NCBI RefSeq assembly: GCF_014199525.1
Contig: NZ_JACHNU010000003.1
Location: 186,001-250,000, forward strand
DNA length: 64,000 nucleotides
Source of the DNA: Conexibacter arvalis
GTDB lineage: Bacteria; Actinomycetota; Thermoleophilia; Solirubrobacterales; Solirubrobacteraceae
Direction: 5' to 3'
The notes beneath the pieces were generated by a model. It was not told the origin of the DNA. It made no database searches and was given only the letters and a program-made list of their open reading frames with translations. Numbering within the stretch: position 1 is the stretch's first letter; each line of letters begins with the position of its first letter. Positions 25,591 to 30,238 of this stretch are shown here, one piece after another. A program made the position numbers and the translations under genes.

Positions 25591-26103
25591 TCAGCGCGGC
25601 AGCAGCACGCGGTCGATCGCGTGGATGACGCCGTTCGAGGCGGTGACGTCGGCGCGCACGACGCGCGCGCCGCCGACGAGCACGGCGCTGCCGCGCACGC
25701 GGACACGGACGCGCTCGCCGTCGAGCGTCCGCACGAACCGCCGTCTGGCGACGCTTGCCGCGGTCAGCCGGCCCCTGGCGACGTGGTGCAGCAGCACGGC
25801 GCGCAGCGCGGCTCTGTCGGACGCGAGTCGCCGGAGGGTGTCGCGCGGGATCTTGCGGAACGCCGCGTCGGTCGGCGCGAAGACCGCGAACGGCCCGGCG
25901 CCGCGCAGCGTTCTGACGAGGCCGGCCTCCCGCAGCAGTCTCGTCAGCGTCGTGAACGAGCCGGCCGCGACGGCCGTTCCGACGATGTCTCGCGCGGCGA
26001 CGGGCCGCGCGGGTTCGCGCGCTGCCGACGCCGGCAGCGCGACGGCGGCGGCCGCGACGAGCGCGACGGCCGTCAGTGCGAGCGTGGTGAATGTGCGTCC
26101 CAT
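25591..26103 (-). CDS. Secreted fasciclin-domain protein
   Basis: 170 residues from ATG 26103, preceded by AGGGGAG with 7-base spacing (a GTG at 26109 is too close to that site). Signal peptide MGRTFTTLALTAVALVAAAA followed by VALPASAAR. One FAS1 domain: DIVGTAVAAGSFTTLTRLLREAGL, GPFAVFAPTDAAFRKIP, LLHHVARGRL, and the H2-like end VTASNGVIHAIDRVLLPR. FAS1 proteins act in adhesion or cell-surface binding. It lies 12 bp after the DUF378 gene on the same strand, so the two are probably one operon, divergent from the CarH-type regulator. Confidence 0.92.
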   Translation of the reverse strand: MGRTFTTLALTAVALVAAAAVALPASAAREPARPVAARDIVGTAVAAGSFTTLTRLLREAGLVRTLRGAGPFAVFAPTDAAFRKIPRDTLRRLASDRAALRAVLLHHVARGRLTAASVARRRFVRTLDGERVRVRVRGSAVLVGGARVVRADVTASNGVIHAIDRVLLPR

Positions 26104-26115
26104 CGTCACGCTCCC

Positions 26116-26367
26116 CTACGACGCCGCGGTCGCGGTGCCGTGCGCAGGCTCGCCGCGGCGACGCGCGAGCAGCGCGCCGATCGCGTAGACGGCCGCGAGG
26201 CCCACGAGGCCGTAGACGATCCGGCTGGCGGCGTTGGTCGCGCCGAAGTCCTCCCCGAAGATCCACGCGACGAGATCGAACTTGGCGATCGCGACGAGTC
26301 CCCAGTTGAGGCCGCCGACGATCAGCAGCGTGGCGGCGAGCGCATCGAGCGCATCGAGCGCCTTCAT
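26116..26367 (-). CDS. DUF378 family small membrane protein
   Basis: 83 residues from ATG 26367, chosen because AGGAGGTGG lies 4 bases upstream (an in-frame start at 26397 has no such site). DUF378 pattern: LDALAATLLIVGGLNWGLVAIAKFDLVAWIFG, then ASRIVYGLVGLAAVYAIGALL, i.e. two membrane spans with the conserved GGLNWGL. Function of the family is unknown. First gene after the divergent CarH-type regulator, followed 12 bp later by the fasciclin gene; B12/light control of this pair is inferred from operator-like repeats between the divergent genes. Confidence 0.9.
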   Translation of the reverse strand: MKALDALDALAATLLIVGGLNWGLVAIAKFDLVAWIFGEDFGATNAASRIVYGLVGLAAVYAIGALLARRRGEPAHGTATAAS

Positions 26368-26393
26368 CTGTCCACCTCCTGTAGAGGTCGTGT

Positions 26394-26431
26394 ACATAGC
26401 CGCACGGTACCCGCGTTGCCCCAGGCTATGT
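26394..26431. promoter_or_regulatory. Inverted repeat in the DUF378/CarH divergent promoter region
   Basis: ACATAGCC at 26394-26401 and GGCTATGT at 26424-26431 are perfect inverted repeats 22 bp apart. TGTACA also occurs at 26391-26396 and again at 26451-26456, exactly 60 bp apart. The region lies between the divergent DUF378 and CarH-type genes and probably contains both promoters. Confidence 0.55.
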
Positions 26432-26460
26432 CAAGAGATTGTCCAGATCTTGTACAGTTG
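26428..26460 (+). promoter_or_regulatory. Three 11-bp direct repeats, candidate CarH operator
   Basis: ATGTCAAGAGA, TTGTCCAGATC and TTGTACAGTTG follow each other head to tail, sharing (A/T)TGTnnA at exact 11-bp spacing, ending 4 bp before the regulator's ATG. Characterised CarH tetramers bind tandem 11-bp repeats with three of their four DNA-binding domains, so the geometry fits. The overlap with the start region suggests autorepression. Confidence 0.65.
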
Positions 26461-26464
26461 GCGC

Positions 26465-27370
26465 ATGGCGACAAGCGGGACCCTGCGCATCGGCGAGCTG
26501 AGCAGGCGCTCGGGCGTCAGACCTGAGCTGCTGCGCGCGTGGGAGCGCCGCTACGGGCTGCTGGAGCCGACCCGCTCGGCCGGCGGGCTGCGCCTCTACT
26601 CGCCGGCGGACGTCGAGCGCGTGCGGCTGATGCGGCAGTACCTCGCCGACGGGCTCGCCGCCGCCGAGGCGGCCGCGCTCGCGCGACGCGCCGTCGCGCA
26701 CGGGGACGGCGCGCACGGGGACGGCGCGCACGGGGACGGCGCGCGGCCCGCGCTGCGAGCGTCGGCCGAGCGCGCGGATCTGGCCGCCGCACTGGAGCGG
26801 TTCGACGAGCCGCGCGCGCAGGAGCTGATCGACCGGCTGCTGAGCATCGCGACCGTCGAGACGCTGCTGGCCGAGATCGTCCTCCCCTACCTGCACGACC
26901 TGGGCGAGCGCTGGCAGCGCGGCGAGGTGACCGTCGCGCAGGAGCACTTCGCCGCAGGGGTGCTGCGCGGACGGCTGCTCGGCCTCGCCCGCGGCTGGGG
27001 GCTCGGCGTCGGGCCGGCGGCGATCCTCGCCTGCCTCCCGGGCGAACGGCACGACCTCGGCCTGATCGCCTTCGGCCTCGCGCTGCGTGCGCGCGGCTGG
27101 CGGATCGTCTACCTCGGGCCCGACACGCCGGTCGAGACGATCGCGGAGACCGCCGACCGGCTGACGCCGACCGCCATCGTCCTCACCGCAGTCACGGGCA
27201 GCCTCCTCGCCCCCGTCCTGCCACAGCTGCGCGCGCTCGCGGCGCGCCATGCGGTCGCGCTCGGCGGGGCCGCCGCACACGACCCCGCGGTCGCGCGCGA
27301 CGGCATCGCCGCGCTCGCCGACGACCCGATCGGGGCCGCCGAGCAGCTCTCGCGTCGCGTACGCGCCTGA
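26465..27370 (+). CDS. CarH/LitR-type B12-dependent photoreceptor repressor (MerR family)
   Basis: 301 residues. MerR HTH (6-75): LRIGELSRRSGVRPELLRAWERRYGLLEPTRSAGGLRLYS. Then a B12-binding helical cap with W150-x9-E160-H161 (WQRGEVTVAQEHF), the Wx9EH signature of CarH, and a Rossmann B12-binding domain with lower-ligand His196 in GERHDLG and VYLGPDTP. The family binds adenosylcobalamin, represses as a tetramer in the dark and is released by light. The residue after the Trp is Gln151, where Thermus CarH, as I recall, has the His that forms the light-state bis-His adduct. A linker carries three AHGDG repeats (about 78-93). Divergent from DUF378 and fasciclin genes, not carotenoid genes. Confidence 0.9.
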   Translation: MATSGTLRIGELSRRSGVRPELLRAWERRYGLLEPTRSAGGLRLYSPADVERVRLMRQYLADGLAAAEAAALARRAVAHGDGAHGDGAHGDGARPALRASAERADLAAALERFDEPRAQELIDRLLSIATVETLLAEIVLPYLHDLGERWQRGEVTVAQEHFAAGVLRGRLLGLARGWGLGVGPAAILACLPGERHDLGLIAFGLALRARGWRIVYLGPDTPVETIAETADRLTPTAIVLTAVTGSLLAPVLPQLRALAARHAVALGGAAAHDPAVARDGIAALADDPIGAAEQLSRRVRA

Positions 27371-27468: not shown

Positions 27469-27475
27469 CTCGAAG

Positions 27476-27549
<74 letters not shown>

Positions 27550-27650
27550 TCGCGCTTGCGGAGCGGGAATGATAGCCGGCCGGCGCGCGCGATGCCGACT
27601 CGCGGCGCGGGCGCGTCCGCGGAAGGGCTGCCCGGAGCACGGGCGGACGG

Positions 27651-28121
27651 TCAGGCGCGGGCGCCTCTGCGGCCGACAGAGCGGCGCGCATCGGGGGCCG
27701 CGGCGCTCGCGTCGCGGGCGGGAGTGCCGGGGGCGGCGGCCGGCGCCTCGGGATCGGCGGAGAGGTCGCCAAGGATGGCGCTGCTCTCCTCCAGCTGGGA
27801 GGTGAGGATCTGGCGCGCGACGGCGAGCAGCTGGAAGGTGCGCGGGTCCTTGACGCGGTAGTGGACCTTCACGCCGCTCTTGCGGCTCTCGAGCACGCCC
27901 TGGCGGCGCATCGCGGTGAGGTGCTGCGACATCCCGCTCGAGTCGAGCTCCAGCGCCGCCTGCAGCTCGCCGACGGTCAACTCGCCGTCGCGCAGCAGCT
28001 CCAGCACGCGGACGCGCACCGGGTGGCCGAGCAGGCGGAAGAGATCGGCCTTGAGCTGGTAGATCGGGTGGGACTCGCCGTCCGGCCCGAGCGTGCGCGG
28101 AGAGGGGTCGCGGTGCGACAT
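27651..28121 (-). CDS. ArsR-family transcriptional regulator
   Basis: 156 residues. Winged HTH from about 20 to 100: IYQLKADLFRLLGHPVRVRVLELL, ELTVGELQAALELDSSGMSQHLTAMRRQGVLESRKSGVKVHYRV. No Cys-rich metal site (CVC) is present, so metal sensing is unlikely; this subtype often sits next to SulP permeases. The last 40 residues are Ala/Pro/Arg-rich low complexity. The divergent SulP permease gene, beyond a small ORF, is the likely target. Confidence 0.87.
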   Translation of the reverse strand: MSHRDPSPRTLGPDGESHPIYQLKADLFRLLGHPVRVRVLELLRDGELTVGELQAALELDSSGMSQHLTAMRRQGVLESRKSGVKVHYRVKDPRTFQLLAVARQILTSQLEESSAILGDLSADPEAPAAAPGTPARDASAAAPDARRSVGRRGARA

Positions 28122-28519: not shown

Positions 28520-30238
28520 ATGCATCCGCCGCATCAGCAACGCGCAGCAGCGCGCCGCACCAAGCCGATCGGCTCGCTGCGCCCGAGCCGCCGCGACTAC
28601 CGCGACCTGCCGCGCTCGTGGGGCGCCGACCTGCTCGCCGGGATCACCGTCGCGGTCGTCGCGCTGCCGCTGGCGCTCGCCTTCGGCGTCACATCAGGCC
28701 TCGGCGCCGAGGCGGGGATCGTCACCGCGATCGTCGCCGGCATCGTCGCCGGCGTCTTCGGCGGCTCGCACGTGCAGGTCAGCGGCCCCACCGGCGCGAT
28801 GACCGTCGTGCTCGTGCCGGTCGTCGCCTCCGTCGGCCCCGACGGCGTCCTGATCGTCGCGCTCGCCGCCGGCCTGCTGCTCGTGCTCGCCGGCGCGCTG
28901 CGGCTCGGCCGCTGGGCCGGGATCCTGCCGTGGCCGGTCGTCGAGGGCTTCACGCTCGGGATCGCGCTGCTGATCTTCCTCCAACAGGTGCCGATGGCCG
29001 TCGGCGTCGACAAGCCCGAGGGCGAGAACACGGCGCTCGTCGCCGCACGCGCGCTGGTCGACTGGGCCGGCGACGGCTGGCAGCCGCTCGCGCTCGTGGC
29101 GCTCGTCTCGGTCACGATGATCGCGCTGCCGCGCCTGCACCGCGCCCTGCCAGCCTCGCTGATCGCCGTCGGCGCCGCGACCGCCCTCAGCGAGCTGGCC
29201 GGCCTCGACGTCGCCACGATCGGCGCGATCCCGGCCAGCCTCCCCGCCCCGTCGCTCCCCGCGGTCGACGTCGCCGACCTGCCCGGGCTCGCCCCCGCGG
29301 TCCTCGCCGTCGCCGCGCTCGCCGCGATCGAGAGCCTCCTGTCGGCGAAGGTCGCCGACGGGATGAGCGACGGCGAGCCGCACGATCCCGACCGCGAGCT
29401 GGTCGGCCAGGGCCTGGCGAACGTCGCAGTCTCGTTCGTCGGCGGGATGCCCGCGACCGGCGCGATCGCGCGCACCGCCGTCAACGTCCGTTCCGGCGCC
29501 CGCACGCGCGCGGCGACGATCGTCCACGGCGTCGTGCTCGCGGCGACCGTGCTCGCGCTGGCGCCGGCGATCGGGCACGTGCCGCTCGCCGCGCTCGCCG
29601 GCGTACTGATGGTGACCGCGGTGCGGATGGTCGAGTTCGCGACCGTCGGGCGGATCGTCCGCTCGACCCGCGGCGACGCGCTGCTGCTGCTCGCGACCGC
29701 CGCGGCGACGGTCGCCTTCGACCTCGTGATCGCCGTCGGCGTCGGCGTCGCGCTCGCCGCCGTGCTCGCCTTGCGCGCCGTCGCCGACAGCACCTCGTTC
29801 GCGCGCCAGACCATCGACCAGACCGCCGAGGAGATCGTCGTCGACCCGCTGCTCGAGCGCGCGCTGCTGCAGGAGCACATCGTCGCCTACCGGCTCGACG
29901 GCGCCCTCTTCTTCGGCGCCGCCCAGCGCTTCCTGCTGGAGCTGACCGAGGTCGCCGACGTCGAGGTCGCGATCCTCCGCCTCGGCCGCCTGCGAGTGCT
30001 CGACTCGACCGGCGCGCAGGCGCTCGGCGACCTCGTCGAGCACCTCCAGCGGCGCGACGTCACCGTGCTGCTCGCCTGCGCCCGGCCCGAGCACGAGCGA
30101 CTGCTGCGCCACGTCGGGGCGCTCGACGCGCTCGTCCACGAGAACCACCTGCTGCCCACCTTCGACGCGGCGCTCGCGCACGCCCACCGCCACCTCGCCC
30201 GCAACCGCGAGCGGCGGTCGGCGGCCGTCGCGAGCTGA
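28520..30238 (+). CDS. SulP-family anion permease with STAS domain
   Basis: 572 residues from ATG 28520 (TTG 28466 is an upstream in-frame alternative without an obvious ribosome site). Inner-membrane transporter for sulphate, bicarbonate or a dicarboxylate. SulP core: WGADLLAGITVAVVALPLALAFGVTSGLGAEAGIV, then GGSHVQVSGPTGAMTVVLVPVV, and a middle SLLSAKVADGMSDGEPHDPDRELVGQGLAN. About 10-12 membrane segments to residue 440, then a C-terminal STAS domain (RLDGALFFGAAQRF, LRVLDSTGAQAL). The DSTG site is the usual regulatory phosphorylation motif of STAS. ArsR-type regulator upstream on the other strand. Confidence 0.92.
   Translation: MHPPHQQRAAARRTKPIGSLRPSRRDYRDLPRSWGADLLAGITVAVVALPLALAFGVTSGLGAEAGIVTAIVAGIVAGVFGGSHVQVSGPTGAMTVVLVPVVASVGPDGVLIVALAAGLLLVLAGALRLGRWAGILPWPVVEGFTLGIALLIFLQQVPMAVGVDKPEGENTALVAARALVDWAGDGWQPLALVALVSVTMIALPRLHRALPASLIAVGAATALSELAGLDVATIGAIPASLPAPSLPAVDVADLPGLAPAVLAVAALAAIESLLSAKVADGMSDGEPHDPDRELVGQGLANVAVSFVGGMPATGAIARTAVNVRSGARTRAATIVHGVVLAATVLALAPAIGHVPLAALAGVLMVTAVRMVEFATVGRIVRSTRGDALLLLATAAATVAFDLVIAVGVGVALAAVLALRAVADSTSFARQTIDQTAEEIVVDPLLERALLQEHIVAYRLDGALFFGAAQRFLLELTEVADVEVAILRLGRLRVLDSTGAQALGDLVEHLQRRDVTVLLACARPEHERLLRHVGALDALVHENHLLPTFDAALAHAHRHLARNRERRSAAVAS

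What the first reader, a model, noticed from the sequence alone, without database searches (positions are those of the whole stretch)
26391..27370. CarH-type B12 photoreceptor with three 11-bp operator repeats, facing DUF378 and fasciclin genes
Seen: the regulator has MerR HTH, W150-x9-E160-H161 and a GERHDLG B12 site, and three perfectly phased 11-bp direct repeats end 4 bp before its start codon. Known: CarH tetramers bind tandem 11-bp repeats and lose DNA binding in light. New aspect: the divergent genes are a DUF378 membrane protein and a secreted fasciclin protein, not carotenoid genes. This suggests light or B12 control of a surface/adhesion function.
Basis: partly seen in the sequence, partly recalled or inferred. 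Interest (0 to 1): 0.75.

Follow-up and report, generated by a model that had tools for sequence, protein, structure and literature searches.

The report
Light-switch regulator facing envelope-protein genes
A vitamin-B12 light-sensor repressor of the CarH type sits back-to-back with genes for a small membrane protein (DUF378) and a secreted fasciclin protein; its binding repeats lie at both promoters and occur nowhere else in this genome, which has no phytoene synthase gene and so probably makes no carotenoids, suggesting that this light switch has been put to a different, recurrently conserved job.

Summary
Window 26465-27367(+) encodes a class I CarH/LitR protein (MerR HTH plus B12 domain; Wx9EH and ExHxxG intact). 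It faces a DUF378-fasciclin gene pair (26367-25591, minus strand). The intergenic region holds two three-unit 11-bp ladders, not one: OC (26429-26456, carH side) and OD (26369-26396, DUF378 side). They are the only perfect matches to the ladder pattern in the 5.2-Mb genome. The genome has no phytoene/squalene synthase gene, so carotenoid synthesis is an unlikely target; it has a cobalamin adenosyltransferase. Of 59 near CarH relatives, 25 have DUF378 and/or fasciclin upstream; so do 2 of 13 distant ones. Ladders lie upstream of DUF378 only where carH is divergent (13 of 13, against 0 of 17 DUF378 genes without carH nearby). Best reading: AdoCbl-CarH represses both divergent promoters in the dark and light releases them. 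Light response and the role of the two target proteins are inferred. Caveat: His132 of Thermus CarH is Gln here, and is not His in 70 of 72 relatives. This is a known kind of regulator with a new, recurrent, carotenoid-independent target module.

The parts
26465..27370 (+). carH/litR-like gene (class I): MerR HTH, four-helix bundle with W150-x9-E160-H161, Rossmann B12 domain with GERH (H196); TtCarH His132 position is Gln151
26429..26456 (+). operator ladder OC, three TGTnnA units at 11-bp spacing; overlaps the proposed -10 of carH (unit 3) and, on the other strand, the proposed -35 of DUF378 (unit 1)
26453..26458 (+). proposed -10 box TACAGT of carH, 6 nt before the ATG (leaderless geometry)
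   Evidence: sequence; start codon 6-8 nt after such a box in 14 D/F-linked and 8 other homologous loci that have it; inference
26404..26434 (-). proposed DUF378 promoter: TTGACA (26434-26429), 19-nt spacer, TACCGT (26409-26404)
   Evidence: 14 of 23 linked loci, 8 of 34 others, 0 expected; not called by the generic scan; inference
26116..26367 (-). DUF378 gene, 83 aa, predicted two-helix membrane hairpin
25591..26103 (-). fasciclin (FAS1) gene, 170 aa with a signal-peptide-like start, 12 bp after the DUF378 stop codon

Best explanation
A class I (AdoCbl-type) CarH/LitR repressor controls itself and a divergent DUF378-fasciclin gene pair. In the dark, AdoCbl-loaded CarH oligomers sit on OC, covering the carH -10 box and the DUF378 -35 box, and on OD, just downstream of the DUF378 start site, so both divergent promoters are shut. 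Light cleaves the Co-C bond, the oligomer lets go of the DNA, and CarH, DUF378 and the secreted fasciclin protein are made; loss of AdoCbl would have the same effect. The two products probably form a light-induced membrane/envelope module. Shown here: protein family, cofactor-site residues, two ladders, their uniqueness in the genome and conservation, the gene linkage, no phytoene synthase. Inferred: DNA binding, light response, direction of control, promoter positions, envelope role.
For: Full-length homology to TtCarH and complete light signature GxxW/EH/GxxH/GxxxP. Two perfect 11-bp ladders, the only ones in the genome, both between the divergent genes. 11-bp-specific ladders upstream of 38 of 61 homologues. 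Linkage in 25 of 59 near and 2 of 13 distant relatives, with repeated gains/losses on the tree. DUF378 genes with divergent carH carry ladders, those without carH do not (13/13 against 0/17). Ladder near the target start in 11 of 23 loci, 0.08 expected. Single-copy DUF378 and fasciclin at carH in this genome; five same-genus genomes without carH lack DUF378. No PF00494 gene; adenosyltransferase present.
Against: No expression, binding or light data. His132, which in TtCarH forms the bis-His photoproduct and supports light-driven disassembly, is Gln151. The score is far below NCBI's CarH equivalog cut-off (164 against 400 bits). The DUF378 promoter has a long 19-nt spacer and is not called by the generic scan. 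34 of 59 near relatives lack DUF378/fasciclin nearby, so CarH of this clade also serves other neighbours.
Confidence: 0.7

Rival explanations
1. The protein is mainly an AdoCbl (B12 status) sensor rather than a light sensor: it represses DUF378-fasciclin when AdoCbl is plentiful, and light plays little part in the natural habitat.
For: His132 is replaced, and TtCarH H132A stays mostly tetrameric after light (PMC10442372). The operator and B12 site would look the same.
Against: The Wx9EH cap and all light-signature elements are kept; CtMerR with Arg at this position still monomerises in light and SasPcob with Gln still photoreacts (PMC11796333). Bound AdoCbl is photolabile in any case.
Confidence: 0.17
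2. CarH only autoregulates; DUF378 and fasciclin are incidental neighbours under other control.
For: Many near relatives have other neighbours (ECF sigma factor, SDR, amine-oxidase-like, PRC/DUF2382 genes).
Against: A second ladder on the DUF378 side, absent from DUF378 genes without divergent carH; linkage recurs in distant phyla; OC unit 1 coincides with the proposed DUF378 -35 box.
Confidence: 0.08
3. The system is photoprotective through a carotenoid: the fasciclin protein is an AstaP-like carotenoid carrier induced by light.
For: AstaP is a photooxidative-stress-inducible FAS1 protein (PMC7477208, PMC10147662) and a distant sequence relative (E 2e-6); several carH-fasciclin genomes have PF00494 genes.
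Against: This genome and three further genomes with linked DUF378 (G023, G024, G027) have no PF00494 gene; similarity is higher to CupS, MPT70 and TGFBIp than to AstaP.
Confidence: 0.05

Closest known systems
Thermus thermophilus CarH (PDB 5C8D, 5C8E, 5C8F; 8C31 series)
   Same: Full-length homology and domain order, Wx9EH, B12-ligand His, three-unit 11-bp operator overlapping its own promoter
   Different: Gln instead of His132; targets are DUF378-fasciclin instead of carotenoid genes; two ladders instead of one
Bacillus megaterium CarH/LitR and class I LitR in general
   Same: AdoB12-type MerR repressor with tandem 11-bp operator (PMC8156234, PMC9758184)
   Different: B. megaterium operator has four repeats and serves carotenoid control
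CtMerR (8JBS) and SasPcob photocobilin (8J2W)
   Same: Light signature GxxW/EH/GxxH/GxxxP with a residue other than His at the His132 position (Arg and Gln; PMC11796333)
   Different: CtMerR has a diverged DNA-binding domain; SasPcob has a biliverdin-binding domain and is not a MerR regulator
Class II LitR of Pseudomonas (PplR, PmlR)
   Same: LitR-family control of genes other than carotenoid genes (PMC9758184)
   Different: Class II lacks the full B12 domain and targets photolyase, fatty-acid and folate genes

Membership tests
CarH / class I LitR | MerR-type N-terminal winged HTH | tested here: met
   PF13411 E 3e-15
CarH / class I LitR | Wx9EH motif capping the adenosyl group | tested here: met
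   W150, E160, H161; invariant in 38 homologues; definition from PMC8156234
CarH / class I LitR | ExHx2Gx41SxV/Tx22-27GG B12-binding motif | tested here: met
   E194-R-H196-x2-G199-x41-T241-x-V243-x23-GG; spacing exact, Ser replaced by Thr (sequence)
CarH / class I LitR | Tandem 11-bp direct-repeat operator overlapping the promoter | tested here: met
   Two three-unit ladders, period-specific and conserved, by sequence only; promoter positions inferred
CarH / class I LitR | AdoCbl-dependent oligomer that binds DNA in the dark and releases it in light | not testable with these tools
   needs purified protein
NCBIfam NF052513 CarH equivalog | Score at or above the curated cut-off (400 bits) | tested here: not met
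   164 bits, E 4e-48: related, not the same equivalog
TtCarH-type bis-His photoproduct | His at position 132 | tested here: not met
   Gln151 here; His in 2 of 72 homologues
Light-induced carotenogenesis system | Carotenoid synthesis genes present and under CarH | tested here: not met
   No PF00494 gene in a 99% complete genome while seven control genomes ring

The most novel reading that the evidence does not exclude
In bacteria without phytoene synthase, an AdoCbl photoreceptor is kept for a dedicated, light-induced envelope module (DUF378 membrane hairpin plus secreted fasciclin) as its only operator-bearing target, using photorelease without the Thermus bis-His state; this would give DUF378 a first physiological setting.
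Probability: 0.5. Interest if true: 0.65.

Novelty: new variant of a known kind. Interest (0 to 1): 0.52.

Why it matters
B12 photoreceptors of the CarH type are known chiefly as switches for carotenoid genes. Here one appears to be kept in bacteria without phytoene synthase and wired to two protein families with no known link to light. It offers a small, testable light-response module, a lead to the function of DUF378 and of bacterial single-domain fasciclins, and a compact divergent promoter region that may be light-controlled. It also shows that His132 of the model protein is the exception among these relatives.

Tried and rejected
Carotenoid target: rejected for this genome. OD as mere Shine-Dalgarno conservation: 17 DUF378 genes without carH nearby, many with a good Shine-Dalgarno, have no ladder. 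Generic sigma-70 scan: no promoter called in the intergenic region. A first trial pattern and first coordinates, off by one base, were uninformative. CarH-like genes elsewhere in the genome (C1:763985-766319) are MerR paralogues without Wx9EH. DUF378 has no solved relative and its model is of modest confidence, so no fold search was made with it. The gene calls used for neighbourhoods are rough, GC-position based; the DUF378/fasciclin linkage itself was scored by tblastn.

Full report
WHAT IS THERE. The regulator gene starts at ATG 26465 and encodes 301 aa. Pfam finds MerR_1 (E 3e-15), B12-binding_2 (7e-14) and B12-binding (1e-9). phmmer aligns it end to end with Thermus thermophilus CarH (E 2e-35), and an AlphaFold model (pLDDT 92) has TtCarH dark, DNA-bound and light structures as its best PDB matches (B12 domain about 2.5 A rmsd over about 200 columns). 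The facing genes are DUF378 (start 26367, E 2e-21) and, 12 bp after its stop codon, a fasciclin gene (start 26103, E 2e-35). The close spacing suggests one operon; that is an inference.

THE COFACTOR SITE. W150, E160, H161 and H196 are invariant among 38 aligned homologues. All four elements of the published light signature, GxxW, EH, GxxH and GxxxP (PMC11796333), are present as GERW, EH, GERH and GPDTP. The B12 motif given in PMC8156234 is met with Ser replaced by Thr. The residue after the Trp is Gln151, where TtCarH has His132. In 72 homologues this position is mostly Ala, Glu, Gln or Ser, and is His in only two, both of the Rubrobacter type. TtCarH H132A keeps the dark structure but stays mostly tetrameric after light (PMC10442372), whereas CtMerR with Arg there still falls to monomers and SasPcob with Gln still photoreacts (PMC11796333). 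So the absence of His does not rule out a light switch, but the bis-His end state cannot form through this residue.

THE OPERATORS. A search of the whole genome (5.2 Mb, 18 contigs, 99% complete) for three TGTnnA cores at 11-bp spacing gives exactly two perfect matches: OC and a second ladder OD, TGTCCACCTCCTGTAGAGGTCGTGTACA, 26369-26396, in the same intergenic region. With one mismatch allowed, two unrelated places appear, similar in number to the reversed control. In homologous loci a three-unit ladder (at most one mismatch in 12) lies upstream of carH in 21 of 27 loci with linked DUF378/fasciclin and in 17 of 34 others; shuffles give about 0, and periods 9, 10, 12 and 13 give 0 or 1. The unit consensus is compatible with the TtCarH repeat nAnnTnnACAn.

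PROMOTERS. OC unit 3 contains TACAGT exactly 6 nt before the ATG, the geometry of a leaderless start; in homologues with such a box the start codon follows 6-8 nt later. Read on the other strand, OC unit 1 is TTGACA, followed by TACCGT after 19 nt. TTGACA-N16..19-TAnnnT occurs in 14 of 23 loci with a divergent target and in 8 of 34 others, with 0 expected from shuffles. OD would then lie just downstream of the DUF378 start site. The generic scan does not call this promoter, so the reading rests on conservation.

CONSERVATION OF THE MODULE. One genome scan (64 loci) and a family search (37 of 146 genomes) were merged and de-duplicated. Of 59 near relatives, 25 have DUF378 and/or fasciclin upstream; so do 2 of 13 distant ones, in Steroidobacteraceae (DUF378) and Myxococcota (fasciclin). 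On a tree of 71 CarH proteins the linkage changes state 10 times for DUF378 and 12 times for fasciclin, so it is neither one frozen cluster nor random. In the reverse direction, DUF378 genes across the class were fetched without reference to carH: 13 have a divergent carH and all 13 carry a ladder upstream; 17 without carH nearby have none; two with carH nearby but not divergent have none either. Ladders of at least 10/12 beside the target start are found in 11 of 23 loci, 0.08 expected. In other actinobacterial classes 3 of 21 DUF378 loci are next to carH. In the own genome DUF378 and fasciclin are single-copy and both lie at carH; the five same-genus genomes without a carH hit lack DUF378, and four of them lack fasciclin.

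NOT CAROTENOIDS. The genome has no PF00494 (phytoene/squalene synthase) gene, nor do G023, G024 and G027, while seven control genomes ring. It has a cob(I)alamin adenosyltransferase, so the cofactor can be made from cobalamin. Other linked genomes (G119, G134, G136, G137) do have PF00494 genes, so the module is compatible with both states.

WHAT THE TARGETS MAY DO. DUF378 is an 83-aa predicted two-helix hairpin with a conserved LNWGLVA...DLVA core (model confidence modest), without solved relatives. The fasciclin protein has a signal-peptide-like start and a single FAS1 domain, nearer to CupS, MPT70 and TGFBIp than to the carotenoid-binding AstaP. An envelope role in light is a reasonable inference and no more.

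LITERATURE. Searches of the open PMC library found no paper holding CarH with fasciclin, nor DUF378 with fasciclin. Class II LitR of Pseudomonas is a known precedent for non-carotenoid targets (PMC9758184). Subscription papers were not searched, so prior mention cannot be excluded.

VERDICT. A light response is likely from family and residues, but unproven.

Noticed in passing
26695-26744: 15-bp tandem repeat (3.3 exact copies) encoding HGDGA repeats in the CarH linker between the DNA-binding and B12 domains; it coincides with the low-confidence stretch 85-95 of the model.
   Followed up: partly
26337-26361: 9-bp tandem repeat CGAGCGCAT (2.8 exact copies) inside the start of the DUF378 gene (LDALDAL).
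   Followed up: no
L102:8914-11395 (G000 C1, about 763.9-766.4 kb): Two neighbouring MerR regulators with CarH-like length but no Wx9EH or ExHxxG motif, just upstream of a long gene resembling isoleucyl-tRNA synthetase: apparently B12-less CarH-like paralogues.
   Followed up: partly
L024, L033, L061, L073 (ECF sigma factor); L017, L021 (amine-oxidase-like); L019, L025, L055, L059 (PRC/DUF2382): CarH relatives without DUF378/fasciclin face other recurrent genes, suggesting that CarH targets in Thermoleophilia are diverse and often not carotenoid genes.
   Followed up: partly
L058 2959-4470: Three fasciclin genes in a row upstream of carH.
   Followed up: no
27475-28121: A tRNA-Arg(ACG) gene (27475-27549) and an ArsR-type regulator (27651-28121) follow carH on the minus strand; a SulP-type transporter gene starts near 28520 on the plus strand.
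   Followed up: no
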